Source: a virus
Length of the DNA stretch: 26,471 nucleotides
IMG/VR virus record: IMGVR_UViG_3300047469_000125
Location: 1 to 26,471 of that record
Strand: one strand, 5' to 3'
Below, piece after piece: positions 1,094 to 25,016 of this stretch. The position numbers and the translations under genes were made by a program. The number at the start of each line of letters is the position of its first letter. Positions within the stretch are counted from its first letter, which is position 1. The notes under the pieces were generated by a model. That model worked only from the letters and a program-made list of their open reading frames with translations, was not told the origin of the DNA and did not search any database.

Positions 1094-1543
1094 ATGAAAG
1101 TGATCTACACCAACAAGCCAGGCAATGAGCCTGGCTTGTGCTATCGACTGCTCAGTGAGTTCTTCGGGGTGATCAGCGCGGCGACAGATGTCTTCGTACA
1201 GGGCGACAACCCCAACATCATCGAGGCCTACCAGCGCGCAGGCATCAAAGTCACCGGCGCCGATGAAAACGGCTTGCGCACTGATGGCCCGACGGTCGCG
1301 GAGTATGTCGAGGCCGGCTACCAGGCGAGCAACTACCCGCCGACCGGCTACGCCTCGCGCAGCACTGCCGAAGAAATCGACGCAGCCATTGCCGCGCAAA
1401 AGCCAAAGGCTGACAACGACACTGAAACCGACCCGCTGAAAATGAAGGTCGACGATCTCAGGGCCTGGCTGACAGCCAAGAACATCTCGTTCGATGCCTC
1501 TGCCAAGAAAGAAGACCTGCAGGCCTTGGTGCCGAAGGAATAA
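1094..1543 (+). CDS. Head-associated protein with C-terminal HeH/LEM-like domain
   Basis: The 149-residue product follows the capsid gene, with GGGAG just ahead of the ATG. Residues 1-90 look like a compact alpha/beta region. Residues 91-113 are a charged linker. Residues 114-148 (DPLKMKVDDLRAWL then ISFDASAKKEDLQALV) fit the helix-extended-helix pattern of SAP/HeH/LEM nucleic-acid-binding domains, which many phages place in a small head gene at this spot. A role in head completion or contact with packaged DNA is inferred from position. The stop lies 10 bases before the next start, and its last codons provide that gene's ribosome site. Confidence 0.6.
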   Translation: MKVIYTNKPGNEPGLCYRLLSEFFGVISAATDVFVQGDNPNIIEAYQRAGIKVTGADENGLRTDGPTVAEYVEAGYQASNYPPTGYASRSTAEEIDAAIAAQKPKADNDTETDPLKMKVDDLRAWLTAKNISFDASAKKEDLQALVPKE

Positions 1544-3679: not shown

Positions 3680-3976
3680 ATGAGCGCAATTCTTCCCAAC
3701 GGCTCCATCCTGGAGATCGCGTCAACCTACAGCGTAGCCAAGCTGGTGACGGCTATCAGCAACGCGAACCCGGCTGTGGCGAGTGCTGCTGCGCACGGTC
3801 TGGCCGAAGGCGACATCGTAGTCGTGAACTCCGGCTGGACCCGCCTGAACGACAAGGTCGTTCGCGTGGCTGATCCCGATTCTGGCACCTTCGAGATGGA
3901 AGGCATCGACACCACCAAGACCACCGTTTACACGGCGGGCTCAGGCGTTGGCTCGGTTCGCGCCGCAAGTGGCTAA
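3680..3976 (+). pseudogene. Tail tube protein, truncated by deletion
   Basis: The frame gives 98 residues starting MSAILPNGSILEIAS. The block AHGLAEGDIVVVNSGWTRL (about residues 39-57) and a following VVRVADPDSGTFEMEGIDT match the N-terminal half of the tail tube proteins of Pseudomonas siphophages. In intact homologues the chain continues well beyond GVGSVR, with the strands that build the tube ring. Here it reads AASG and stops. The DNA after about position 3962 is instead tape measure sequence in another frame. The product would lack its C-terminal half and is not expected to polymerise. The ATG has only a weak ribosome site (GAGGA). Confidence 0.8.
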
Positions 3977-5681
3977 GCTGGTCGCCTACTACCAGCAGCA
4001 AATCGCGGCAGCCCAGAAAGCCGTCGACCTTCAGCAACAGAAGGCCGCGCTGACTGGACAGGAAGAGTCGAGCCGCCGTCAGCAGATCGCGGGCGAGGAC
4101 AAATGGCTGGCTGATGGCCTGAAATACCTGACCGACCAGCAAAAGATGGAAAAGGAGATCGCCGAGGCTCGCACTCAAGGCCTCAGTTCTGGCCGCTCCC
4201 AGGTGGAGATCGAGCAGCGCATCAGCGACATCCGCAAGTCGTACGAGAAAAAGCTGTCGGGACCGGCGAACCAGCTGGATCTGACCAGTTTCAACGACAC
4301 GCAGAATCAGCTCAAGGCGCTCACTGCTACTTACAGCAACGCCCAAAAGGACCTGGACGCCCAGCAGAAGGCCGGGATCATCTCGCAAGAGTCATATGCG
4401 GCCCAACGCACGGCGCTGATCCAGGCTGAGAAGGAAGAGGTCACCAACGCCTATCAGGCAGAGATCTCGGCACTGGAGGCGACCCGAGACAAATCCTCGA
4501 CCACTGCTCAGCAGCGCATTCAGCTTGACCAGAAGATCGCCGACGCCCGAACCAGCATGGTCAAGGCGCAGCAGGATGCCGACACCGAGCTTTCGGTGCT
4601 GGCGACCAATGAGCAGGGGCGGCTGGCGAAGCAGGAACGGTCGATCAATTCCTACGTTCAGGCGCTGGGCCAGCAGCAGAAAGCGCTGGAGCTCGCAGGG
4701 CAACGCGCCGTGCTGGGCGTTGGCCGTGGTGATCGCCAGAACGCACTGAATGGAGAGCTCAACAGCCAGCAAGACCGTTTTGCTCGGCAATCGCTCGATC
4801 TGGAAAACCAGCGTTCTGATCCGTCACGCAATATGTCGGACGAAGAGTTCGCCAAGAAGTCGCAGGCTCTTGCCGATGCCAACAAAAAGGCAACGGATCA
4901 GATCCGGCAGAACTATGCCGACGTTGAAACTGCACAGGGTGATTGGACGAATGGGGCTACATCGGCTTGGGAAAACTATCTCGACAGCGCCAAGAACGTT
5001 GCCGGGCAGACGAAGAGCCTATTCACCAACGCCTTCAGCAGCATGGAGGACGCAGTCGTCAATTTCGCGCTGACTGGGAAGCTTTCGTTCTCGGACTTTG
5101 CGAAATCTATTCTCGCTGACATGGCGCGAATCGCTACTCGGCAGGCCTCGTCGCAGCTGCTGAGCTCGTTGTTCGGTGCGGGGCTGAGTTACTTTTCTGG
5201 AGGTGCAAACGGCTTTGCATCAGGCTCAGCGGCCGCAACCTCATCAAGTCTGGGTGCTTCTCAGGCGGGTTACTCGTCCACTTACTTTCCGCAGGCGAAG
5301 GGCGGGGCGTGGTCTGGTGGCGCCCAGATGTTCGCCAATGGCGGCGCCTTCACCAACAGCGTGGTCAGCACGCCCACGGCGTTTGGAATGGCTGGGGGTG
5401 GTAAAGGTGTAATGGGGGAAGCGGGGCCTCAGGCGATCATGCCGCTGACCCGAACGTCTGGCGGCGCCTTGGGTGTGCGCGCAATCGGTGGCGGCGGGTC
5501 AAATGTCCAAATCAATGCGCCAGTCAGCATTTCGGTAGAAGACCGGAGCTCCGAGGGCCTGACGCTCGATCAGACAGCACTCGCTCAAAACCTGCAAATC
5601 CAGATCAAACAGGCGGCAGATAAGGCAGTTGCTGATTCATGGCGACCGGGCGGCGTCAGCTTCCGGCAGACGAGGACCTGA
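3948..5681 (+). pseudogene. Tape measure protein, 5'-truncated remnant
   Basis: The open frame covers up to 577 residues but has no credible start; the first possible codon is a TTG inside the tail tube remnant. Residues from about 10 to 330 are long Gln/Ala/Lys-rich heptads of the tape measure rod. Around 343-410 comes the lambda gpH C-terminal type signature (LFTNAFSSMEDAVVNFALTG, LSFSDFAKSILADMARI). A Gly-rich region and GVMGEAGPQAIMPLTR follow, as in lambda-family tape measures. Intact relatives are commonly near or above 1,000 residues, so a large N-terminal part is gone. The 3' end is intact and sits 2 bases before gene M. In this state it probably cannot set tail length. Confidence 0.82.
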
Positions 5682-6783: not shown

Positions 6784-7542
6784 ATGCTCAAACACATCCT
6801 CAAGGCGGTGCAGGCCCATGCCGACGCCGAATACCCGCGTGAGTGCTGCGGGCTACTGATCAGCATTGGACGCAAACAGCAATACATCCCGTGCGCCAAT
6901 ACCGCGACCGACCCGAACGAAGAGTTCCGTATTGCCCCAGAGGATTACGCCGCGGCTGAAGACGAGGGCGAGGTAATCGGCATCGTTCACTCGCATCCGG
7001 ATGCAACCAGCAGACCGTCACCGCGCGATCTGGCGATGTGCGAAGCGACCGAGCTGCCCTGGCACATTCTGAGCTGGCCGGAAGGCGACCTGCGCACCAT
7101 CGTGCCCACTGGTCACACGCCGCTGCTGGGTCGTCCGTTCGTACATGGTGCCTGGGATTGCTGGCAGGTCTGTGCTGACTGGTATAAACGCGAATGGGGC
7201 CTGGTGTTCGAGGCCTTCAAGCGCGAGGACGGCTGGTGGGAGCAGGCGGACGGCCCGAGCCTGTACGAGCAAGCTTACGAGGCTGCTGGCTTTGAGCGTG
7301 TTGGCACTCCTCAACGCGGCGACATGATCGTGATGGACGTAGGACGCACCAAACACCCAAACCACGCCGGAATATTTCTCGGATCTGATCCCGCACTGCC
7401 CGGCGAATCAGCGGCAGTACACGGCGCCGGACCTTTCCTACTGCATCACATATACGGCAAGCCGTCCGAGATCATTGTCTTCGGCGGGCCTTGGCATGAC
7501 AGAACACGCCTGATCCTCAGGCACAAAGACGCAAATCAGTGA
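6784..7542 (+). CDS. K: Tail assembly protein K: JAMM plus NlpC/P60 domains
   Basis: The 252-residue product has both lambda gpK domains. The JAMM/MPN metalloprotease motif is complete: E20, then H69-S70-H71, S79 and D82 in HxHx7Sx2D form. The NlpC/P60 peptidase part has C126 in WDCWQ and H194 in HAGIF, the nucleophile and base expected of a peptidoglycan-cutting enzyme. Family members act in tail tip maturation and possibly in local cell wall opening during DNA entry. The start at 6784 follows the L stop by 2 bases; a longer frame upstream lies inside L. In lambda gene I comes next, but here I is displaced by a 5.4 kb insert. Confidence 0.9.
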   Translation: MLKHILKAVQAHADAEYPRECCGLLISIGRKQQYIPCANTATDPNEEFRIAPEDYAAAEDEGEVIGIVHSHPDATSRPSPRDLAMCEATELPWHILSWPEGDLRTIVPTGHTPLLGRPFVHGAWDCWQVCADWYKREWGLVFEAFKREDGWWEQADGPSLYEQAYEAAGFERVGTPQRGDMIVMDVGRTKHPNHAGIFLGSDPALPGESAAVHGAGPFLLHHIYGKPSEIIVFGGPWHDRTRLILRHKDANQ

Positions 7543-7565
7543 GCGGCGATGCCGCGGGAGAACTT

Positions 7566-7691
7566 ATGAAAATTAAGGTCGTCGTTCTGAGCGAGGGTAT
7601 GAAGGCGGTTGCTGGTTTTGGTTTGGGGGTGCCCGCAACCGCAGGCACTGGTGACGCGGTTACGAAACTCTCGACTGAACCAGCGAAATGA
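7566..7691 (+). CDS. Small 41-residue protein after gene K
   Basis: This short ORF begins MKIKVVVLSEGMKAVAGFG and ends STEPAK. It has a good ribosome site (GGGAGAACTT before ATG) and follows gene K by 23 bases on the same strand. Its 3' end overlaps the end of the leftward 76-residue gene by 32 bases, so the two converge. I recognise no family. It marks the last rightward gene before the inserted region, and is either a small late gene or the remains of one cut by the insertion. Confidence 0.5.
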   Translation: MKIKVVVLSEGMKAVAGFGLGVPATAGTGDAVTKLSTEPAK

Positions 7692-7890
7692 TCTGCTGAT
7701 ACTGGGCATGGTTGCCATTTTCAATTTGCACTGACTTCAGCTCCTCAAGATCCTTATGCAAAGCGGCTTTATCAATGGAGTCTTGTTTATTGAGTGCTGT
7801 CACTACTGCAAGAAGCGCATTCAGTATGGCGGACGGAAGAGTGTTCACGGCCTGCTCAAGAGCTTGTAGGCGTTGATCTACAGTTTGCAT
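7660..7890 (-). CDS. Small helical protein, 76 residues
   Basis: The ATG at 7890 is preceded by AGGAGG with ideal spacing, which decides the start over an upstream ATG in the same frame. The product begins MQTVDQRLQALEQAVNTLP and is almost wholly helical: a first amphipathic helix, a hydrophobic ILNALLAVVTAL segment (about 22-33) and a polar second helix ending near QIISLVQS. A coiled-coil oligomer or a membrane-associated peptide are both possible. It is the last gene of the leftward block. No family recognised. Confidence 0.6.
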   Translation of the reverse strand: MQTVDQRLQALEQAVNTLPSAILNALLAVVTALNKQDSIDKAALHKDLEELKSVQIENGNHAQYQQIISLVQSRVS

Positions 7891-8023
7891 TCGACCTCCT
7901 AGGTCATATTGCCCCGGTCCATGGGCTTGCAGGCAACGGACCGAGGCGGTTCGTTGAAGGCGCAACGCTACTACGGTGTGCGTCGATCCCGTTACTGGGT
8001 ATTTGGACAGGCTGGATGGGTGT

Positions 8024-8788
8024 TCAGTTCGTGTTATCAGTCCGATGTTGGCGGTTCAACCGACTAGGTGAAATCTCTTGTGGGGCGCACGGGAGTGTCC
8101 GCGGTATGCAATTCTGCACAGGCGTTGGCAGAGGCAATTGAATTGCTCGATGCTCATGAGGTCGCCCGTTGTAGGAGACCCATCCCAGATAGCCTCCAAC
8201 TCCGATGATTAAGTAGAACCCGAAAAACACAGTCATCAAGCCAGCTAACCGAATTCGGCGATATCCAAGTTCACCACGCTTGATCGAATTCCAAGTGCTC
8301 TTCAATATTGGCGCAGCCGCAGTCCTGATTTCCTCGCAACACTCAAGAACCTCTTTAAACTCTTTGTTCCCAAGCCTCCGCGCCTTGGACACTGCAGCCA
8401 TAAGCTTTGCTTCTGGACCGTCCGGATTTTGCGAGATGTGCTCTGGGTTAAGCCTAAGTTGAATCCTGCTCAGATTTTCCGCTGCTTTCGCATAGCAATC
8501 TTTGGTTTCCTTGAAGAACTCGATTTGCAGCTCGTGAGCCTCTTGAGCAGTATGAAATTGTTCCGGCTTGAATCTGCCGGGCCTGATGGCTCGCGAGATT
8601 TCTTGAGCGGCGGCGGTGTATTCGGAAATCTCGTTTCGTAGGCCGTCGACCCATCCGAGGCGGAATTCGGAAACCTTATTTTCCTTGGCGCTTACCATAT
8701 TCATGATGGAAAAGAAGCCGGTCAGAAGAGCTGCTGTTATGACGCCGAATGCAACATATACGGTTGATGGAATTACACTAAGATCCAT
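8024..8788 (-). CDS. Two-transmembrane protein, candidate superinfection-exclusion factor
   Basis: The 254-residue product has a transmembrane helix at about 9-31, a long soluble helical region of about 150 residues and a second transmembrane helix at about 181-203, then a Pro-rich polar tail. Directly after the first helix comes SAKENKVSEFRLGWVDGL (33-50). This K-E-N-K-(V/I)-S-E-F-R-x-x-W-(V/I)-D-x-L signature recurs in uncharacterised two-helix proteins of prophages and other mobile DNA. Both helix ends would put the soluble region in the cytoplasm. The gene is leftward, against the late operon. Its place beside repressor and antirepressor genes parallels sieA of P22, so a role in blocking other phages is a reasonable guess. 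Function is unproven. Confidence 0.65.
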   Translation of the reverse strand: MDLSVIPSTVYVAFGVITAALLTGFFSIMNMVSAKENKVSEFRLGWVDGLRNEISEYTAAAQEISRAIRPGRFKPEQFHTAQEAHELQIEFFKETKDCYAKAAENLSRIQLRLNPEHISQNPDGPEAKLMAAVSKARRLGNKEFKEVLECCEEIRTAAAPILKSTWNSIKRGELGYRRIRLAGLMTVFFGFYLIIGVGGYLGWVSYNGRPHEHRAIQLPLPTPVQNCIPRTLPCAPQEISPSRLNRQHRTDNTN

Positions 8789-8909
8789 GACTCTCTCGTC
8801 TGCTGTTGAGCATGATTCCCGCTCCGGACGCCTAGGCGCCGCAGTAGATCCAATTTAGGCATTCCCGGATTTAGGGATTTGTTGGTATATCGCTTATGAC
8901 TAAGCCGGG

Positions 8910-8923
8910 CACTTGCACAAGTG
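8910..8923. repeat. Perfect inverted repeat between two leftward genes
   Basis: CACTTG-CA-CAAGTG is a perfect 14-base palindrome just after the stop of the 85-residue gene. No T run follows on either strand, so a terminator is unlikely. It could be an operator for the downstream two-transmembrane gene or a chance palindrome. Confidence 0.35.
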
Positions 8924-8925
8924 AT

Positions 8926-9183
8926 TCATTTAAAGGACCAATTCGACCATTGAACCGGACCCGCTTTAACTAGGTAGTCAGTTAGGCGCTTCTCACCCCA
9001 GAACGTAAGCCTTCTGTTCTGATCTTGAATCGCAAACACAATCGGGATTTGGGGAAAAAATGGTTGAAAGAAAGCAGTCGTCTCATCGCGAGATCTCTGA
9101 CTGCTGACCGCCCCGGATCCGACTAACAAAACCGCAAATGAAACACCGCTTACTACGTAGTACGACCCGCTATAGCTGCTCAT
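8926..9183 (-). CDS. Single-transmembrane small protein, 85 residues
   Basis: The ATG at 9183 has GGAGGT 5 bases upstream and is preferred to the ATG 30 bases further out. The product starts MSSYSGSYYVVSGVSFAVLL, with one hydrophobic helix at about 9-27 and a polar C-terminal domain of about 55 residues containing IPIVFAIQDQNRRLTFWGEKRL. With few charges before the helix the orientation is unclear; it may be a membrane anchor or an uncleaved signal. It lies in the leftward block between the 100-residue and two-transmembrane genes. No family recognised. Together with its neighbour it could form a small membrane system. Confidence 0.55.
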   Translation of the reverse strand: MSSYSGSYYVVSGVSFAVLLVGSGAVSSQRSRDETTAFFQPFFPQIPIVFAIQDQNRRLTFWGEKRLTDYLVKAGPVQWSNWSFK

Positions 9184-9309
9184 ATTGACCTCCATGGAGA
9201 ACTGATAGCGCAATGCTACATCTGTCGAAGATTTGGCTGTACTGGCCTTTTGTCCACACTGGATGGGCAGACAGCCCGGTGCTACCCTCGGCCCTTTCTC
9301 AATGAGGGA

Positions 9310-9612
9310 TCAGTCGGTCCAAGCTGTCAGCAAAGCAGTGCTGACCGTCATCCAAATGAGATCGTCGGGCGAATCATAACAATTGCTCTCGATCACATCG
9401 GCAAGCCGATGCACGCGATAAACGTGACAACTGGTGATCGGCGGGCATTTGGGGAAAACCTGAGCTGCGATGGCATTCGTATCAACGCCTAGCCCGCTCA
9501 GCGCGTCGTGTAACATCATCCTTGCCCCAAATAGATCGTCAGGATTGGACGAGGCATTGGCCGCGCCTGCGCGTAAAAGTCTGACACGCTCACCAACGGT
9601 TAACGAAATCAT
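9310..9612 (-). CDS. Hypothetical protein, 100 residues, next to the repressor
   Basis: The frame is open upstream into the repressor gene, but the ATG at 9612, preceded by GGGGGT, gives a 100-residue protein starting MISLTVGERVRLLRAGAANA. The remainder is mixed alpha/beta with two cysteines (PKCPPITSC). No signal peptide or membrane helix is visible and I do not recognise a family. It begins 52 bases after the repressor gene on the same strand, so it is likely co-transcribed with it and expressed in the lysogen. Confidence 0.5.
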   Translation of the reverse strand: MISLTVGERVRLLRAGAANASSNPDDLFGARMMLHDALSGLGVDTNAIAAQVFPKCPPITSCHVYRVHRLADVIESNCYDSPDDLIWMTVSTALLTAWTD

Positions 9613-9664
9613 TCGACCCCCAGATGAAGCACGCAAAATGCCAGGTTGGCTGGACTTGGGATAG

Positions 9665-10198
9665 CTACTTCTTAGATGCTCGACCATCAGCATCTTGGCG
9701 CTTGCGTATACCTTCCAAGATGATGGTTTCGTCATCGGTGCCTTGCTGAAGCTCTTTCAAACGGTGCTTGATACGTGATTCCTTCACGCCAGGCTTCATG
9801 CGCGCCTGCGCCTTTACTATCTCTTCCGGTGTGTAAATGGATGGTTGCCGAAGCCCGAGCAGTTCGTCGTGGCTCCAACTAATGAGCCTGGTAAGAAAAA
9901 AAGGCCCGTACTCAGTCATATCCATTCCCGCTTCCGATGCTGCTTCCTCAAGCCGCTTATAGAGCTCAGCAGGTACAGGAACCGAAACCTCATCGCTTTC
10001 GAGAAAAACAGACAACTCGCCCGCGCATCCCAAAGCCTCTTCCAGGGCCCAAAGCGCCTTTTTTCGAGGTTTAGACTTGCCGGATTCATACTTTGATATT
10101 TGAGACCATGACACCCCAACCATTGCAGCAAGCTCACGTTGGGTGAGGCCCTTCTGCGTTCGAAGGCGGATTAGTTTGTCAGCGAATGGGTCGTTCAT
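9665..10198 (-). CDS. Prophage repressor: HTH domain plus RHH-like segment
   Basis: The 177-residue product starts at 10198, chosen because the N-terminus MNDPFADKLIRLRTQKGLT is the canonical start of a Cro/CI-type HTH. That domain covers about 7-59, with helix 2 TQRELAAMVG and recognition helix WSQISKYESG. Residues 71-105 (VSVPVPAELYKRLEEAASEA then GMDMTEY) have the strand-helix-turn-helix pattern of ribbon-helix-helix proteins, an unusual pairing. There is no LexA/CI-type peptidase domain, so RecA-driven self-cleavage is not expected. It is transcribed away from the Arc-like gene and probably represses that operon and itself. Release presumably depends on antirepressors. The far C-terminus is polar and helical. 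Confidence 0.8.
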   Translation of the reverse strand: MNDPFADKLIRLRTQKGLTQRELAAMVGVSWSQISKYESGKSKPRKKALWALEEALGCAGELSVFLESDEVSVPVPAELYKRLEEAASEAGMDMTEYGPFFLTRLISWSHDELLGLRQPSIYTPEEIVKAQARMKPGVKESRIKHRLKELQQGTDDETIILEGIRKRQDADGRASKK

Positions 10199-10334
10199 AG
10201 CTATCTCACAAAGCGGTTTCGCGTTGAAGCGTATTACTCTAGAAGCATACAAAGCAACAAAAGACACAACGGTGTTGACAAGTGAAACAAAGGAAGCAAA
10301 ACTACACAAAAGGAAACAACACAAAGGAAGCACC
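10199..10334. promoter_or_regulatory. Divergent control region with A-rich repeat array
   Basis: This 136-base gap separates the repressor and Arc-like genes. On the minus strand TTGTTG (10260-10255) and TAATAC (10236-10231) are spaced by 18 bases and suit a repressor promoter. On the plus strand TTGACA at 10275-10280 is a perfect -35, but the -10 at 17 bases (AAAACT) is poor. ACAAAGGAAGCA occurs exactly twice (10287-10298 and 10321-10332), with a variant ACAAAAGGAAACA between them (10306-10318) and a weaker ACAAAGCAACA at 10249-10259. These repeats overlap the rightward promoter and the Arc-like ribosome site, so they are likely operators. The second exact copy also supplies the Shine-Dalgarno AAAGGAAG. 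Confidence 0.65.
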
Positions 10335-10496
10335 ATGAGCGCAGTGAAGATCACTACAGCAGTCCGAATGCTTTGCGAAATGAGGGAGCGACTTGAGCGG
10401 AAGGCAGCCGAAAATGGCCGCAGCCTGAGCGGTGAGATAGTTTTCCGTTTGCGTAAGTCGCTGGAGCAGGAAGATGAACAGATCAGACAGGCATGA
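10335..10496 (+). CDS. Arc-like ribbon-helix-helix regulator, 53 residues
   Basis: The 53-residue product is the same length as P22 Arc and aligns with it without gaps: R11 with Arc R13, E15 with E17, and ENGRSLSGEI (26-35) with ENGRSVNSEI. The strand residues that would read DNA by analogy are T7, A9 and R11. Arc represses the ant operon in P22, preventing overproduction of antirepressor. Here the gene is first in an operon with two antirepressor-like genes, so the same job is likely. Translation starts at ATG 10335 after AAAGGAAG. A leftward hairpin terminator begins right at its stop. Confidence 0.78.
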   Translation: MSAVKITTAVRMLCEMRERLERKAAENGRSLSGEIVFRLRKSLEQEDEQIRQA

Positions 10497-10527
10497 AAAA
10501 GCCCCAACCGCGCCAACGGTTGAGGCT
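10494..10527 (-). terminator. Leftward terminator between the Arc-like and Bro genes
   Basis: An 11-base stem with one mismatch (AGCCCCAACCG at 10500-10510 and CGGTTGAGGCT at 10517-10527) encloses CGCCAA. On the minus strand it is followed by TTTTT, so it fits termination of leftward transcripts. In the rightward direction no T run follows, so the operon should be able to pass, though the hairpin will form in its message. Confidence 0.6.
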
Positions 10528-10563
10528 CATGAAGCAGAACGTAAATCTACTAGGAAAAACGTC

Positions 10564-11490
10564 ATGACGAATAATAGCACAGCAGCTTCCAATGTCATCC
10601 CCTTCGACTTTCGTGGTCACAGCGTTCGCGCAGTGACCATTGGCGGTGAGCCATGGTTTGTAGCATCCGACATTTGCCGGGTGCTCGACGTGACTAACAC
10701 TACCCAGGCCATGCAGGCTCTTGATGACGATGAACGGTCTATGTTCAACATAGGTCGTCAGGGTGAGGCGAACATTGTGAATGAGTCAGGCCTCTACACT
10801 CTGATTCTCCGCAGCCGCGATGCAGTCAAAAAGGGCAGCAAGCCGCATGCGTTTCGCAAGTGGGTTACCGCCGAGGTGCTGCCCGCCATCCGCAAGCAAG
10901 GCGCATACGAAGATGCATCGGGCCAGATGAAGCCGCTAGTGCAAGCCATGATCGGGACGTATGGCGCGCAAGCCCTGAGCAATGTGATTCGCTGTCGGGT
11001 GGCCAAGCTTGAAGCTTCGCATCAACGCAGCGCAGTGATGAAACTGTCATCGGCGTTGCATGCTCGGTTCAGTGTTCCTCGCATTGAGCAGATTCCAGGG
11101 GACCAAATGGATGCGGCGTGCAACTTCGTCGCGAGCTATGCGATTGAAGGTGAATACCTTCCGCATGAAAGGAAATCTGACCGCCTGAATCTCAGCTTCC
11201 CGGTTGAAGAACTGGCGCGGCGCCGTCCAGGCATGCTGATCGAGAAGGCCGGCGAACGCCGTTGGCTGGACGTGATGCTGGACGACCTACGCGACATCCG
11301 TGGTGAGGGGACGCCTTGTGAGGAAATCTTGTGGGAGCTGGAAAGTAACGGCTACGAGGTTGAAGGTGCATTGTGCGAACTGAAAACCTATCGCGCCAAG
11401 CTTCGTGAGTTTCAGTCTTGGGTCAGCGGCATGAACGTGCTTTTTACGGAGCCGAAGCGGTACGCGGTCAAGCTGGAGGGTGCAGCATGA
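10564..11490 (+). CDS. Antirepressor with Bro-N and ORF6C-like domains
   Basis: The predicted product is 308 residues from ATG 10564; the frame is open 90 bases further left but that part overlaps the Arc-like gene and the hairpin. Residues about 10-115 are a clear Bro-N domain: RGHSVRAVTIGGEPWFVASD, then a dense ALDDDERS and HAFRKWVTAEVLPAIRKQG. Around 160-200, ALHARFSVPRIEQIPGDQMD resembles the ORF6C segment of phage antirepressors. The last 100 residues are unfamiliar. Such proteins bind DNA or other phage repressors and help induction or establishment. It ends in an ATGA overlap with the next gene. Confidence 0.78.
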   Translation: MTNNSTAASNVIPFDFRGHSVRAVTIGGEPWFVASDICRVLDVTNTTQAMQALDDDERSMFNIGRQGEANIVNESGLYTLILRSRDAVKKGSKPHAFRKWVTAEVLPAIRKQGAYEDASGQMKPLVQAMIGTYGAQALSNVIRCRVAKLEASHQRSAVMKLSSALHARFSVPRIEQIPGDQMDAACNFVASYAIEGEYLPHERKSDRLNLSFPVEELARRRPGMLIEKAGERRWLDVMLDDLRDIRGEGTPCEEILWELESNGYEVEGALCELKTYRAKLREFQSWVSGMNVLFTEPKRYAVKLEGAA

Positions 11491-11705
11491 ACTTCAACAT
11501 CAAAGCAGACGGGCGCGCCCTGATCCTCAGCCCTGAACGTGCGAATCTGATTGGCCGCTCAGGCCAACTCATCCGCAAGGTCGAAGAAAACTGGTTGATC
11601 CTCGTTGAGGGCAAGCGCTACTCGGTAAACGAGAAGAACCTGATGCCTCTGGATGGTTTCAGCCCCAGTGCGGTGGTTTCGGCGGAGTGGAGGAAGACGG
11701 CATGA
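11487..11705 (+). CDS. Small protein between two antirepressor genes
   Basis: The 72-residue product starts MNFNIKADGRALILSPERAN and appears mostly beta with a short helix (SGQLIRKVEENWLILVEGKRY). No domain recognised. Both ends overlap neighbours in ATGA (11487-11490 and 11702-11705), so translation of all three is coupled. That close packing argues it works with the antirepressors, perhaps as a partner or modulator, but there is no direct sign of function. Confidence 0.6.
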   Translation: MNFNIKADGRALILSPERANLIGRSGQLIRKVEENWLILVEGKRYSVNEKNLMPLDGFSPSAVVSAEWRKTA

Positions 11706-12430
11706 GCGCGTTAATGACAGTTCCGTTTCATGGCGTGAATCTTTCTCTAGTTGAGCATGAGGGCCAACCTTACGTGCCAATGCGTCCAATGGTCCAGGGC
11801 ATGGAAATCGACTGGAAAAGCCAGCACAAGAAGCTGACATCAAATGAAAAACGCTGGGGCGTGGTCATGATCACCACTCCCTCTGCTGGCGGGGATCAGG
11901 ATTCTATCTGCATCCCGTTGCGCAAGCTTCCGGGGTGGCTGTCGACTCTGGAGCCGAATCGCGTAAAAAACCCTCGAGCCAAACTAAAAATTGAAGAGTT
12001 TCAGGATGAGTGCGATGACGCGCTTTGGGACTACTGGAATGAAGGCCATGCCGCAAACCCTCGCTCACAGCCGCCAGCGGCTAATGATTCGGCTGTAGAG
12101 TTCGGAAAGCTTGCTCTAGCTCACCTGCCGAACCTTGGCGATACTAGCAAGCAGGCGTTGCTCAGTCATATTTCTGAGCTGGCTTTCGGGCAACGGCTGA
12201 TTCCGCTGCCTAGGGTGGAGGAAAGCCTGAAGTTGGCGGGAGAGGTTGGCGAGTTGTTCGGTGTCAGTGCGCAGAAAATTGGCAGGCTTGCGAATCAGCA
12301 TGGATTGAAGACGGGTCAGTACGGCGAGATCCGCCTCGATAAGTCGAAGTACAGCGATCGCCAGTGTGAGACATTTTTCTACAACGGCGCAGCGGTAGAG
12401 AGATTCCGGGAGATTCTCGGGAGCGACTAA
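11702..12430 (+). CDS. P22 Ant-type antirepressor
   Basis: The 242-residue product has a P22 antirepressor N-terminal domain at about 4-115: TVPFHGVNLSLVEHEGQPYV, PMRPMVQGMEIDWKSQHKKL and ICIPLRKLPGWLSTL are characteristic. The C-terminal part (about 175-240) with SAQKIGRLANQHGLKTGQYG and RQCETFFYNGAA resembles the HTH-like C-terminal domain of other phage antirepressors. P22 Ant binds and inactivates c2-type repressors, so this protein could lift repression of this prophage or of others. It is the last gene of the arc-led operon and is followed by a strong terminator. Confidence 0.82.
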   Translation: MSALMTVPFHGVNLSLVEHEGQPYVPMRPMVQGMEIDWKSQHKKLTSNEKRWGVVMITTPSAGGDQDSICIPLRKLPGWLSTLEPNRVKNPRAKLKIEEFQDECDDALWDYWNEGHAANPRSQPPAANDSAVEFGKLALAHLPNLGDTSKQALLSHISELAFGQRLIPLPRVEESLKLAGEVGELFGVSAQKIGRLANQHGLKTGQYGEIRLDKSKYSDRQCETFFYNGAAVERFREILGSD

Positions 12431-12464
12431 GCCTCCCGCCAAGGACGGCTCACCCACAAAGACG

Positions 12465-12490
12465 AAGCACCCCGCGTAGGCGGGGCTTTC
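12465..12490 (+). terminator. Terminator of the antirepressor operon
   Basis: CCCCGC (12470-12475) and GCGGGG (12480-12485) form a 6-pair core around GTAG, with flanking ACGAA/TTCGT able to extend it. The T run is short (CTTTCG). It lies 35 bases after the antirepressor stop and before the lipoprotein gene. Confidence 0.6.
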
Positions 12491-12556
12491 GTGCTGGCGT
12501 TTCGTATGTCCCATTGCTGGTGGTAGAGTTCGGCCAAACCACAATGAGGGATCATC

Positions 12557-12904
12557 ATGCGAATTCTGATTGGGGCTATGGCTGTTGCCCTGTTGGTTGG
12601 GTGCACATCTCCAAGCGACCTTAAATCAAACGGCCCTGTCTTTTCGGCCAATACGGCGAAGAACCCTAAGCAATACGCCTTGTGCGTATTCCCTAAATGG
12701 CAAGATCTCAACCCAGGGTCAACACTGAGCGAAACAGAATCGGGTTATAGATTGGTGATGTCCAATCCGGGAGTAGGACAAACGGATGAGCTACTGGAGG
12801 TTTCCAAAGCCTCAGCAGGGTCGGTTGTTCGCCATTATCAGCGAATTGCTTGGCAACAGCTTGGACGCGCAGGCGTTTCAGAGGCAGTGAAATCTTGCCT
12901 CTAA
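12557..12904 (+). CDS. Small lipoprotein, possible lysogenic-conversion factor
   Basis: The 115-residue product has a lipoprotein signal: a basic start, hydrophobic stretch and lipobox LVGC with the acylated Cys at 16. Residue 17 is Thr rather than Asp, which suggests outer-membrane sorting. The mature part is about 100 residues with two further cysteines (one in ALCVFP, one near the C-terminus), possibly a disulphide. The gene has its own ribosome site (GAGGGAT) and is bracketed by terminators, the usual form of a moron. Small phage lipoproteins such as Cor and Llp block receptor-dependent superinfection. That role is a guess from type and position. Confidence 0.68.
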   Translation: MRILIGAMAVALLVGCTSPSDLKSNGPVFSANTAKNPKQYALCVFPKWQDLNPGSTLSETESGYRLVMSNPGVGQTDELLEVSKASAGSVVRHYQRIAWQQLGRAGVSEAVKSCL

Positions 12905-12920
12905 ACAATTAAGTAAACAG

Positions 12921-12942
12921 ACCGCCTACGGGCGGTTTTTTA
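12921..12942 (+). terminator. Terminator directly before gene I
   Basis: ACCGCC-TACG-GGCGGT is followed by six Ts. CTGGAGAAAA, the ribosome site of gene I, begins only a few bases after the T run. The same hairpin-plus-ribosome-site arrangement occurs before gene J and before the endolysin. Confidence 0.85.
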
Positions 12943-12960
12943 TTGTCTGGAGAAAATACG

Positions 12961-13575
12961 ATGAGTTCAGCGATCGACTATCACCCAATGACAAAAATCG
13001 AGCTGTGGGGCGCGCTTGGGAAAAAGCTTGGAAAAATCCACCGTCGCTTGCTTGATACGGGCAAGTCTTGGGAGGTTTTCAAGGCACTGGAAGTTTCTTT
13101 GCCGGGCTTCAAAGAGGAGGTGACACGACTGCATCGTCTCGGAATGCGTTTCGCGATATACCGAAACAAGCAAAATGTGGGCGAAAAAGATTTTGATCTG
13201 GGTGGAACAAGGCATCTTCGGATTGTGCCAGTTATTTCTGGCAGCAAACGCGCTGGCGTATTGCAGACCGTAGTCGGCATCGCGATGATCGTTGCATCAT
13301 TCTTCGTGCCGGGCAGCACCCCAGCGGCCCTGGCGGCTTCATCCGCTTTGTTAAGCGGCGGCGTGGCAGTTACTGCAGGTGGAGTGATCCAGTTGCTCAG
13401 TCCTCAAGCCGGCGGACTCCGCACAAGCTCTGCGCCTGAAAACGCGCCATCGTACGCATTCGGCTCGGCTCGAAACACCACAGCCAGCGGCAACCCGGTC
13501 CCGATCTGCATCGGCGAAAGAGACTGGGGTGGCGCGATCATCAGCGCCTCGATCTACGCCGAAGACAAGACCTGA
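12961..13575 (+). CDS. I: Tail assembly protein I
   Basis: The 204-residue product matches lambda gpI-type tail assembly proteins. The N-terminus has a small ubiquitin-like region (IELWGALGKKLGKIH, then VTRLHRLGMRFAIY), and the C-terminal half a long Gly/Ala hydrophobic stretch around 100-150 (SGGVAVTAGGVIQLLSPQ) before a short conserved end with VPICIGERDWGGAIIS. It works with K in assembling the tail tip and is not part of the finished virion in lambda. The ATG at 12961 is preferred over a TTG 18 bases upstream because CTGGAGAAAA lies between them. Gene I should directly follow K but is separated from it by the immunity insert. Confidence 0.85.
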   Translation: MSSAIDYHPMTKIELWGALGKKLGKIHRRLLDTGKSWEVFKALEVSLPGFKEEVTRLHRLGMRFAIYRNKQNVGEKDFDLGGTRHLRIVPVISGSKRAGVLQTVVGIAMIVASFFVPGSTPAALAASSALLSGGVAVTAGGVIQLLSPQAGGLRTSSAPENAPSYAFGSARNTTASGNPVPICIGERDWGGAIISASIYAEDKT

Positions 13576-13632: not shown

Positions 13633-16600
13633 ATGGGCGCAGCTGAAAAGATCGAGATCACTGGCGCCAAGGGCGGAAGCAGCAACCCCAAAACTCCCAT
13701 TGAAGCCTCCGATAGCTTGCGGTCGACAAACGTGGCCAAGCTTCTTATTGCTGTAGGTGAAGGCCCCTTTGCTGAGGCGCCGACTGCTAGAACGATCAAG
13801 CTTGACGGCACGCCGATTGAAGACGCGAGTGGCAACGTCAATTTCCCCAATGTGAAATGGGAGTTTCGTAGCGGGACAGTTGAGCAAAGCTACATTCCTG
13901 GCATCCCGTCGGTCGAGAACGAAACCACCGTCAACGTCGAGTTGCGCAGCGGCACTGCTTGGGTCCGCTCGCTGACCAACACCCAGCTTTCTGCTGTGCG
14001 CCTGCGTTTCGCCTGGCCCGCGCTGCAACAGCAGGATGAAAACGGCAACGTCGGTGGCTACCGAATTGAATATGCCGTGGATGTGTCCACAGACGGCGGC
14101 GCCTATCAGCAGGTGCTGGACGAGGCGGTCGACGGCAAGACCACCACCCGGTACGAGCGATCCCGTCGCATCGATCTGCCAGCGGCTACTAGTGGATGGC
14201 AGATCCGAGTTCGCCGGATCACCCCGAATCAGAACAGTAACAAGGTCGCCGACACGATGCTGGTGGCGGGCTATACCGAAGTCATCGACGCGAAGCTGCG
14301 CTACCCGAACACAGCGCTCCTCTACATCGAATTCGACGCCGAGCAATTTACCAACATTCCTGCCGTGACCTCTGGATGTAAGGCGCGGATGTGGTCAGTT
14401 CCAAGTAATTACGATTCATATGCCCGCACCTACAGCGGAGTATGGGACGGCACCTTCAAGCAGGCGTGGACTAACAACCCTGCATGGGTGACATTCGGTA
14501 TCTGCACGGTGGACCGCTTCGGCCTGGGCAAGCGCATCAAGCCATTCATGGTCGACAAGTGGGAGCTGTACCGGATCGCCCAATACTGCGATCAGTTGGT
14601 GCCGGACGGCATAGGCGGACAGGAACCACGTTTCCTTTGTGACATGAACCTGCAGGGCAAAGCCGAGGCTTGGACGCTGCTACGTGACATTTCGGCTATT
14701 TACCGCGGGATGACGTATTGGGCTCAGGGCCAACTCGTCATGCAGGCCGATATGCCGCGCGCGCAAGACTTCGACTACGTCTTCACCCGTGCCAATGTCA
14801 TCGACGGCAAGTTTTCCTATGGCAGCGCCTCGTCCCAAACTCGCTACACCCGGGCAATCGTAAGCTACGACAATCCGGCGAACAATTACGACACCGACGT
14901 GACGGCCTACGCAGACCCAGTATTGCAGCGCCGATTTGGCGACAAGCCTGTCGAAATCAGCGCTATTGGCTGCACGCGGGCATCTGAGGCACAGCGTCGC
15001 GGCAAATGGGTGGTAATGAGCAACAACCAGGACCGGACCGTTACGTTCAAGACGGGGATGGAGGGCGCGATTCCGCTGCCTGGGTACATCATTCCAATTG
15101 CGGACTCGCTGCTGGCAGGCCGCGAGATTGGCGGCCGTATTTCAGCTGCGGCCGTTCGTGTCGTGACGCTGGACCGTGACACCCTGGCCAAGGCAGGTGA
15201 TCGTCTGATCATCAACCTGCCGAGCGGAAAGGCTGAAGGCCGCACGGTTCAGTCTGTTGCCGGTCGCGCGGTGACGCTGACCACCGCTTACAGTGAGACT
15301 CCGACGGCACAGCTTCAGTGGGCGCTGGATGCGGATGACCTTGCGATCCCGCTTTACCGCGTGCTGAGCACCAAGCGCACCACCGAAGGCGACTATGAAA
15401 TCGCTGCGCTCCAGTTCGAGCCTGGCAAGTTCGCTTTCATTGACACTGGCGCGAAGCTGGAAGAACGCCCAATCAGCGTCATCCCGATCACCGTCGTTCC
15501 GGCGCCTGCCAGCGTTACGCTGACTTCAAACTCTGCAATTGATCAGGGCATCGCTGTCACCACCATGACCATCACCTGGCCTGCCGTTAACGGCGCGGTC
15601 GGGTACGATGTCGAGTGGCGCAAGGACAACGGCAACTGGATCAGGGTCCAGCGTACCGGCAGCACCAGCGTCGACATCACCGGCATCTACTCGGGCGCGT
15701 ATCTGGCTCGCGTTCGCGCCGTGAGCGCCTACGACATCTCGTCGATCTGGCGCTCCTCGAATCTGACGCAGCTGAACGGTAAAGAGGGCCTGCCGCCGGC
15801 GGTGACCTCGCTGACCACTGAAAGCCTGATCTTCGGCATCGGCCTGAAGTGGACTTTCCCACCAGGTGCGGAAGATACCCAGCGCACCGAGCTCTGGTAC
15901 AGCGAAGCGCCTCAGCTTGACAGTGCGACCAAGCTGGCGGACCTGGCATACCCGCAATCCGACTACACCATGCAGGGCCTGCGCGCGGGCCAGTCGTTCT
16001 TCTTCTGGGCGCGCCTCGTCGATCGAACCGGCAACGTCGGGCCGTGGTTCCCGCAAGCTCCAACTGTCGTGAACGGCCAGGCGAGCGCGGATGCCGATGA
16101 CATTCTCGACTATCTGACTGGCGAGATCACTGAAAGCCAGCTGGGTCAGGAGCTGCTGGGGGAAATTGGCAAGATCGGCGGCGACGGCCCGGGTTCAGTG
16201 AACGAACGTCTTGACCAGGTGAGAACCGATCTCGGCGACCAGATCGCCGACGTCAGCAACACCGTGACCGAAGTGCAGACCGAGCTGCAGGCGCAGATCG
16301 ATCAGATCGCCGATCTGGCGGACTCTCTTCCGTATAAAGCGGACCAGACTTACACGACCGGACAGGGCTCGCTCGGCCAAGACGGCATCATTTATCAGGC
16401 GCTTCAGAACGTACCGATCAACACGCCGCCGCCGAACGCAACCTACTGGCTGAACGTTGGCCAGGCAGTTCAGACTGCAAACGGCCTGGCCGCGCGCGTT
16501 ACCACCGCTGAAACCAAGATCACCAGCATCGAGGGCGTGAACACCGCGCAGGCCAGCCAGATTACGGGCTTGCAAACCTCGCTCGACGGCAAGGCTGATT

Positions 16601-24413: not shown

Positions 24414-24484
24414 TTCAATGACTTAGCCCAATCTTTTCAGGTTGGGCTTTTTCATGCTTCGGGGGAATTTCGGGACTTCATCCT
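24414..24484 (+). repeat. Attachment-flank direct repeat, copy 1
   Basis: This segment holds the tRNA terminator and the last codons of the integrase remnant. It recurs in decayed form at 25400-25467: shared blocks include TTCAAT, CCCAATC, TCAGGTT, GGCTTTTTCATG, TTTCGGGAC and TCATCCT, in the same order. Confidence 0.65.
24425..24452 (+). terminator. Intrinsic terminator after the tRNA fragment
   Basis: AGCCCAA (24425-24431) and TTGGGCT (24442-24448) pair around a 10-base loop, followed by TTTTT. It lies 16 bases after the CCA end and is evidently the tRNA gene's terminator, or that of the element using the site. Confidence 0.75.
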
Positions 24485-24988
24485 ATCTTCCTCTTCAAGA
24501 TCGTCAGGACCGGCCCGCGTGAGTCGGTAGCTGTTACCATATTTGCAGTCTCAATCAGCTTTCCAAGCTCCGCGCCGGAGTAATGGCTGGTGATGCTGCC
24601 GTTCTTGTGCCCGAGCAAAGCCTTGCGTTCTTCCTCTGTGACACCCGCTGCCCGGGTGCTGGGTTCCGGTACCGGTATCTCGCAGCCCCGCCCTCAATTT
24701 GCACACCTCCTCCTCGCGACAGCCCGTGCTCACCTTGAACAAAGCCATCGTTTGCAAGTGCGCCGGCAACTCGCCGGACATAATCGACCTCTTATCCCGT
24801 GACATCGGGTACGGCTTGCGGCTCGACTTCTTCTTCTTCTCCTCCAGCTTGGTGAGCATCCGGGACCAGTGTGCGGTGAGTATTTGATTAGGACGATTGG
24901 CAAAGACATAGGCGTTTCCTGCCCGTAGTCGAATACGGGATATAGTTGCAGATGATGTAACCGCTCGTCGGAACCCTAGCACTATCAA
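24478..24988 (-). pseudogene. Tyrosine integrase, broken C-terminal remnant
   Basis: Leftward frames together encode parts of a tyrosine recombinase. One gives ELPAHLQTMALFKVSTGCRE then EEVCKLR, containing the first catalytic Arg block (TGCRE). A +1 shift near 24688 moves into a second frame, EIPVPEPSTRAAGVTEEERK then ALLGHKNGSITSHYSGAELG, with the LLGH and SHYS (Tyr nucleophile) blocks, ending in TGA at 24478. The stretch between, including the HxxR box, has been deleted: STR joins directly to AAGVTEEER. The N-terminal part is also degraded. It cannot be active. Its 3' end faces the tRNA fragment, the usual layout for an element in this site. Confidence 0.82.
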
Positions 24989-24992
24989 GAGG

Positions 24993-25016
24993 TTGGCTAC
25001 TCAATGGGGTAGCCAA
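24993..25016 (+). repeat. Stem-loop overlapping a ribosome site
   Basis: TTGGCTAC and GTAGCCAA form a perfect 8-pair stem around TCAATGGG. The right arm ends at 25016, overlapping the AAAGGA ribosome site of the 75-residue gene. It is not followed by a T run. Confidence 0.45.

What the first reader, a model, noticed from the sequence alone, without database searches (positions are those of the whole stretch)
7566..12940. P22 immI-like immunity module inside a siphovirus tail operon
Genes K and I, normally adjacent in lambda-type phages, are 5.4 kb apart. Between them lie a leftward repressor with membrane-protein genes and a divergent rightward operon of an Arc-like protein and two antirepressors, one with the P22 Ant N-terminus. 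P22 immI also sits among late genes and combines mnt (leftward), arc-ant (rightward) and sieA (leftward). Here the Mnt position is taken by a HTH-type repressor and a second antirepressor is added. Such a module could control this prophage, disarm other repressors and exclude superinfecting phages.
Basis: partly seen in the sequence, partly recalled or inferred. Interest (0 to 1): 0.85.

Follow-up and report, generated by a model that had tools for sequence, protein, structure and literature searches.

The report
Prophage antirepressor switch with antisense RNA
A Pseudomonas prophage carries, inside its tail-gene operon, the kind of switch that Salmonella phage P22 uses to disarm phage repressors, including a relative of P22's small antisense RNA (sar), and this RNA proves to be common in Pseudomonas prophages, where its protein-coding neighbours have been exchanged many times.

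Summary
Its geometry matches P22 almost base for base (arc stop to ant ATG 68 vs 69 nt). Rfam sar matches full length but below cut-off (21.7 vs 43 bits); a model from 15 Pseudomonas junctions finds P22 sar (31 bits); an intermediate in a Pseudomonas P22-like prophage exceeds the Rfam cut-off (44.8). Covariation and wobble asymmetry (75 G-U vs 7 A-C cells) show selection on the minus strand. Of 399 Pseudomonas species genomes, 26 carry strong copies, each between a small, mostly Arc-like gene and an exchangeable gene (Bro-N, Rha, P22_AR_N, AntA, ORF6N or DUF3077). All 50 loci examined have a divergent repressor: 30 HTH, 20 Mnt/Arc-like. Corrections: K-I is a general insertion hotspot (adjacent in 2 of 70 loci); homologues of the membrane-protein and lipoprotein genes occur there without the module; superinfection exclusion is unsupported. 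Function is inferred. New variant of a known kind.

The parts
9665..10198 (-). leftward HTH_3 repressor in the mnt position
   Evidence: PF01381 6e-16, no peptidase domain; divergent repressor present in 50 of 50 loci, 30 HTH and 20 RHH
10231..10250 (.). imperfect palindrome GTATTACTCTAGAAGCATAC, candidate operator of the HTH repressor
   Evidence: aligned in relatives as TGTAYGYCTCTAGAAGCGTACA; function inferred
10275..10303 (+). candidate Pant promoter (TTGACA, N17, AAAACT; weak -10 here, TAAACT in relatives) with repeats around it
   Evidence: conserved in 15 relatives; function inferred
10335..10496 (+). Arc-like ribbon-helix-helix protein
   Evidence: PF03869 1.3e-8
10494..10563 (-). sar-type antisense RNA, opposite the Shine-Dalgarno (10551-10555) and leader of the first antirepressor
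   Evidence: Rfam RF00262 21.7 bits full length; model R1 76.5 bits; covariation and strand test
10500..10527 (-). terminator hairpin of the antisense RNA, T run at 10500-10496
10571..10598 (-). promoter of the antisense RNA (ATGACA, N16, TATTAT, extended TG), inside the first codons of the antirepressor
   Evidence: only sigma-70-type site found in 7500-13000; aligned with P22 Psar; extended -10 in 40 of 51 loci
10564..11490 (+). first antirepressor: Bro-N domain, C-terminal half related to P22 Ant 162-201
   Evidence: PF02498 1.6e-20; BLASTP 9e-5
11487..11705 (+). 72-aa ORF overlapping both antirepressor genes, kept in relatives
   Evidence: 72-84% identical in L085, L132, L142 and others
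11702..12430 (+). second antirepressor with P22_AR_N domain
   Evidence: PF10547 4e-36; 36% identity to P22 Ant 15-131, 8e-21

Best explanation
A mobile, P22 immI-type antirepressor switch set into the late tail operon. Core parts: a leftward repressor (HTH here), a rightward promoter Pant driving an Arc-like repressor and two antirepressors, and a leftward antisense RNA of about 70 nt (sar type). The RNA starts opposite the base before the first antirepressor's ATG, covers its Shine-Dalgarno and ends at a terminator beside the arc stop codon. Shown by sequence: the genes, an RNA structure with minus-strand-specific covariation, its conserved promoter, and its conservation between unrelated arc and ant neighbours. 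Inferred from P22: in the lysogen the HTH protein shuts Pant and the RNA blocks translation of antirepressor mRNA, including mRNA read through from the late promoter. On infection of a cell without this repressor, Pant fires at once, the antirepressors inactivate CI-type repressors, and Arc then shuts Pant off. Only the first antirepressor's ribosome site is covered by the RNA; the second could be controlled only through Pant, translational coupling or mRNA decay.
For: Rfam sar match at the right place. P22 geometry reproduced. R1 finds P22 sar (31 bits) and five junctions not used in training, and nothing above 23.8 bits in 73 control loci. Intermediate above the Rfam cut-off in a P22-like podoprophage. 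Covariation 0.58 vs 0.29 shuffled; 75 G-U vs 7 A-C cells and T run on the minus strand in 38 of 49, on the plus strand in 0 of 49. Extended -10 in 40 of 51 vs 0.2% expected. Codons for the promoter fixed against codon bias. All 26 strong genus loci read lie between a small ORF and a slot gene. Divergent repressor in 50 of 50. Sar function in P22: PMC12197685, PMC12111858.
Against: No expression or binding data. The window RNA alone is below the Rfam cut-off. Pant's -10 is weak in the window. The main repressor lies outside the window, and the prophage looks damaged. Some slots hold DUF3077, whose function is unknown, so the slot is not always a known antirepressor.
Confidence: 0.8

Rival explanations
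1. The conserved junction element works on the plus strand, as a hairpin in the arc-ant mRNA (cis attenuator or translational coupler), and no antisense RNA is made.
For: The same inverted repeat would also form in the mRNA; in a few loci the plus strand scores weakly with the model.
Against: Wobble asymmetry 75 to 7, T run only on the minus strand, a minus-strand promoter at fixed distance in 40 of 51 loci, and homology to a proven antisense RNA.
Confidence: 0.07
2. The element is only a terminator that stops leftward transcription from entering arc, plus a shared recombination joint; conservation reflects exchange of modules, not an RNA regulator.
For: The element is shared between unrelated neighbours, as a joint would be.
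Against: The RNA 5' part and the promoter are conserved as well as the terminator, and the start lies exactly at the next gene's start codon in all 26 strong genus loci read.
Confidence: 0.08
3. The module is an SOS-linked induction switch: DNA damage relieves Pant and the antirepressors induce this prophage, as in Gifsy phages, with no role against incoming or resident foreign phages.
For: Gifsy antirepressors are LexA-controlled (PMC7067206).
Against: Pant lies between genes for an HTH and an Arc-like repressor, with repeats and a palindrome, and the parts match P22 immI. A LexA box was not formally searched for, so this is not excluded.
Confidence: 0.15
4. The whole 5.4 kb is one immunity-and-exclusion unit, with the leftward membrane genes excluding superinfecting phages like sieA.
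For: The leftward genes lie where sieA lies in P22, and two have hydrophobic segments.
Against: Homologues of these genes occur in K-I gaps without the module; no significant similarity to SieA.
Confidence: 0.1

Closest known systems
Salmonella phage P22 immI (mnt, arc, sar, ant)
   Same: Same order and strands, same RNA position and promoter offset to within 1-2 nt, Arc domain, Ant N-terminal domain, placed among late genes.
   Different: HTH repressor instead of Mnt; first slot is Bro-N and the P22_AR_N protein is a second gene; siphovirus tail operon; no SieA homologue.
Rfam RF00262 sar RNA
   Same: Full-length match, antisense to the arc-ant junction, terminator hairpin; linked by an intermediate above cut-off.
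   Different: Window copy scores 21.7 bits against a cut-off of 43; 5' hairpin weak or different; the Rfam model passes cut-off in only 1 of 399 Pseudomonas genomes where R1 finds 26.
Pseudomonas phage Medea1 K-I region
   Same: HTH, Arc-like protein (79% identical to the window's), the RNA (89% identical) and an antirepressor between K and I.
   Different: The antirepressor is Rha-type; the record calls the Arc gene 'hypothetical' and has no RNA annotated.
C4 antisense RNA of phages P1 and P7
   Same: A phage antisense RNA that represses an ant gene and bears on heteroimmunity (PMC12197685).
   Different: Different position and structure (own knowledge); no Rfam match to it was returned in the window.

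Membership tests
P22 immI region | rightward Arc-domain repressor followed by an antirepressor gene | tested here: met
P22 immI region | leftward Mnt (ribbon-helix-helix) repressor | tested here: not met
   HTH_3 in the window; Mnt/Arc-like in 20 of 50 relatives
P22 immI region | sar antisense RNA gene at the arc-ant junction | tested here: met
   position, promoter, terminator, homology
P22 immI region | gene after sar is a P22_AR_N antirepressor | tested here: not met
   Bro-N in that slot; P22_AR_N two genes later
P22 immI region | sieA beside it | tested here: not met
   no significant similarity of any leftward protein to SieA
P22 immI region | lies among late genes | tested here: met
   between tail genes K and I
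Rfam RF00262 sar | score above the curated cut-off | tested here: not met
   21.7 vs 43 bits; met by relative L122, 44.8 bits
Rfam RF00262 sar | about 70-nt RNA antisense to the ant leader, ending in a terminator hairpin | tested here: met
   sequence anatomy and covariation
Rfam RF00262 sar | RNA is expressed and represses ant translation | not testable with these tools
   needs RNA and reporter data

The most novel reading that the evidence does not exclude
The sar-type RNA gene is the conserved adapter of a mobile regulatory cassette spread through Pseudomonas prophages of several morphotypes. Its left repressor (HTH or RHH), its Arc-like repressor and its effector (six protein families, including DUF3077) are exchanged around it. 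RNA-RNA pairing between resident and incoming phages then helps set which prophages can disarm which, and DUF3077 proteins would be an unrecognised class of phage regulator.
Probability: 0.35. Interest if true: 0.75.

Novelty: new variant of a known kind. Interest (0 to 1): 0.66.

Why it matters
The sRNA review read here lists sar only for phage P22 (PMC12197685), and the papers read on Medea1, related Pseudomonas phages and Pf prophages describe no such module. The data here show a large homologous family in Pseudomonas prophages: 26 of 399 species genomes carry strong copies. The RNA sits at a fixed place in a four-part switch whose protein parts change while the RNA stays. That gives a sequence tag for finding antirepressor operons, a natural set of RNA variants for studying how antisense specificity evolves, and a basis for predicting which prophages can trigger one another. 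It also corrects the annotation of Medea1-type phages.

Tried and rejected
Exact DNA pattern of the leader in viral contigs: one hit, a near-copy of Medea1. One genome-contig scan with the Arc alignment gave only two loci, so genus-wide work used the RNA model. Mechanical promoter and terminator scan: the number of promoter sites is not above chance, so only position and conservation were used. NsiR1 matches at the same place were rejected as a generic terminator match below cut-off. Genus hits at 42.4 bits or less that were read (L126-L128) had no arc-like gene and no antirepressor-like slot gene and were treated as chance; L125 (42.5 bits) has a DUF3077 slot gene but no arc-like ORF was found. 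Class-wide sample: no strong copy outside the genus, best 37.6 bits; gene context of those hits was not read. Considered and rejected: membrane genes as sieA equivalents. Structure prediction was not used, because the open questions are regulatory.
Full report
What is there. Coordinates are window coordinates. The window is an IMG/VR virus record of 26,471 bases. K ends at 7542 and I begins at 12961. Between them, leftward, lie four ORFs and an HTH_3 repressor (9665-10198). Rightward lie an Arc-domain protein (10335-10496), a Bro-N antirepressor (10564-11490), a 72-aa ORF, a P22_AR_N antirepressor (11702-12430) and a lipoprotein-like gene.

At the arc/ant junction the minus strand carries an RNA gene. 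Rfam's sar model matches 10563-10494 over its full length 1-68, at 21.7 bits (E 3.7 for the whole window, 0.07 for 500 bases; cut-off 43). The only sigma-70-type site found in 7500-13000 is ATGACA-N16-TATTAT with an extended TG at 10598-10571, minus strand (the number of such sites is not above chance, so the argument rests on position and conservation). The RNA folds better than shuffles (z -4.4) and ends in a hairpin followed by T residues.

Geometry against P22. In the P22 record arc stops at 15022, sar is 15021-15090 (minus), ant starts at 15091 and Psar is 15097-15125. In the window arc stops at 10496, the RNA is 10494-10563, the antirepressor starts at 10564 and the promoter is 10571-10598. 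Arc stop to ant ATG is 69 nt in P22 and 68 here; the promoter lies at +6..+34 in P22 and +7..+34 here.

Homology. A covariance model (R1) built from 15 Pseudomonas junctions finds P22's own sar as its best hit in the P22 genome (31 bits, E 2.4e-4). It also finds the junctions of L028, L041, L072, L073 and L097, which were not used in training. It gives nothing above 23.8 bits in 73 related tail loci outside the module set. In the other direction, the Rfam model finds one Pseudomonas copy above its cut-off (44.8 bits). That copy lies in a P22-like podoprophage, between a virion-protein gene and a tail-protein (tailspike-like) gene, with a Mnt/Arc-like protein, an Arc-domain protein, a P22_AR_N-type antirepressor and a further regulator gene around it, as in P22. 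R1 scores the same site at 48 bits. The window RNA and P22 sar are therefore linked by reciprocal matches and by an intermediate.

Which strand. Across 49 distinct copies the helix is 97% paired. Seven of 12 pairs show changes on both sides, and the covariation score is 0.58 against 0.29 for shuffles and at most 0.17 for slid versions (an alignment fitted to the model; the MAFFT alignment of 15 gives 0.595 against 0.305). There are 75 G-U cells and 7 A-C cells, so the helix is kept for the minus-strand RNA. The T run follows the stem on the minus strand in 38 of 49 and on the plus strand in none. An extended -10 sits 4-7 nt ahead of the RNA start in 40 of 51 loci, against 0.2% expected; most exceptions have DUF3077 in the slot. 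The first codons of the antirepressor contain this promoter: 30 of 32 early Ser-Thr pairs are spelled AGC ACA, although ACA is 11% of Thr codons further downstream (the loci are related, so this is not 30 independent events).

The RNA is kept while its neighbours change. L091 and L133 share 99% of the RNA but 23% of the Arc-position protein and 2% of the antirepressor N-domain. In 597 pairs with both neighbours below 32% identity, the RNA averages 72% identity against 57% for shuffled sequence. Slot proteins match Bro-N, P22_AR_N, Rha, AntA, ORF6N and DUF3077. Eight of ten diverse small upstream proteins match Pfam Arc, seven above cut-off. All 50 loci have a divergent repressor gene, 30 HTH and 20 RHH.

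Distribution. In 399 Pseudomonas species genomes R1 gives 30 hits of 44.8 bits or more in 26 genomes. One locus of each genome was read; all 26 lie between a small ORF and a slot gene whose start is 0 or 3 nt from the RNA's 5' end. A class-wide sample has no strong hit outside the genus. Of 37 regions examined, about 11 are in the K-I gap and about 9 lie between the neck gene and the tape-measure gene. The rest are elsewhere or unclear, including early regions with DUF3077 in the slot (L149, L161), a contractile-tail cluster (L157) and the podoprophage (L155). Assignments to early and contractile-tail regions rest on reading the translations. The closest isolate phage is Medea1; the papers read that treat it do not mention the module.

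What is not part of it. The K-I gap is an insertion hotspot: 70 loci, median gap about 1.5 kb, 2 adjacent. Homologues of the 254-aa, 85-aa, 76-aa and lipoprotein genes occur there without the module. The 254-aa protein has no significant similarity to SieA.

Regulatory region. In 15 relatives the HTH-Arc interval holds a conserved TTGAC-type -35 with a TAAACT-like -10, three repeats of the type CACAAAAxGCA around it, and a palindrome centred on CTAG next to the repressor gene. In the window the -10 is weak (AAAACT).

How it probably works (inferred). The HTH protein holds Pant off in the lysogen. The antisense RNA pairs with the leader of the first antirepressor, as sar does in P22 (PMC12197685), and stops translation. 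This would matter most where late read-through crosses the module: in P22-like phages arc and ant are also transcribed from the late promoter and sar acts on that transcript (PMC12111858). On entry into a cell without the HTH protein, Pant fires, antirepressors are made, and Arc then closes Pant. P22 Ant's N-terminal domain is found in the second antirepressor and a stretch of its C-terminal half (162-201) in the first, so the two may share the work of one P22 Ant; this is speculation.

Limits. No expression or binding data. The main repressor is not in the window. The prophage looks damaged: the tape-measure protein matches its family only from position 548, and an integrase-like remnant lies in two frames (the integrase call is by eye). 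Literature searches covered only the open-access papers held.

Noticed in passing
L105, L119 (Pfam-tested); L135, L138, L144, L145, L149, L151, L152, L161, L162 (by likeness): A DUF3077 gene sits in the antirepressor slot behind the same RNA; in L149 and L161 the module lies in what reads as an early region, followed by a Rha-like gene and CI/CII-like genes.
   Followed up: partly
L155 (G023), 9356-11473: A Pseudomonas P22-like podoprophage carries a Mnt/Arc-like gene, Arc-domain gene, sar, Ant and a further regulator gene between virion-protein and tailspike-like genes, as in P22.
   Followed up: yes
window 3948-5681: The tape-measure protein (577 aa) matches its family only from position 548 of 1151, and no room for the N-terminal half lies upstream: a likely deletion.
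   Followed up: partly
window 24478-25000 (-): An integrase-like C-terminal remnant appears broken over two frames, so the prophage end is probably damaged (by eye).
   Followed up: no
L157 (G257), 9950-10023: The module lies in what reads as a contractile-tail gene cluster, between sheath/tube-like genes and a tape-measure-like gene.
   Followed up: partly
G214, G268, G362, G367 (L133/L151, L134/L158, L140/L150, L139/L142): Genomes with two copies of the RNA have diverged copies (70-84% identical), not identical ones.
   Followed up: partly
window 1094-1543 (+): A 149-aa protein after the major head gene has a C-terminal match to an Arc-like repressor PHROG (3.7e-11) next to the head-tail connector genes.
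   Followed up: no
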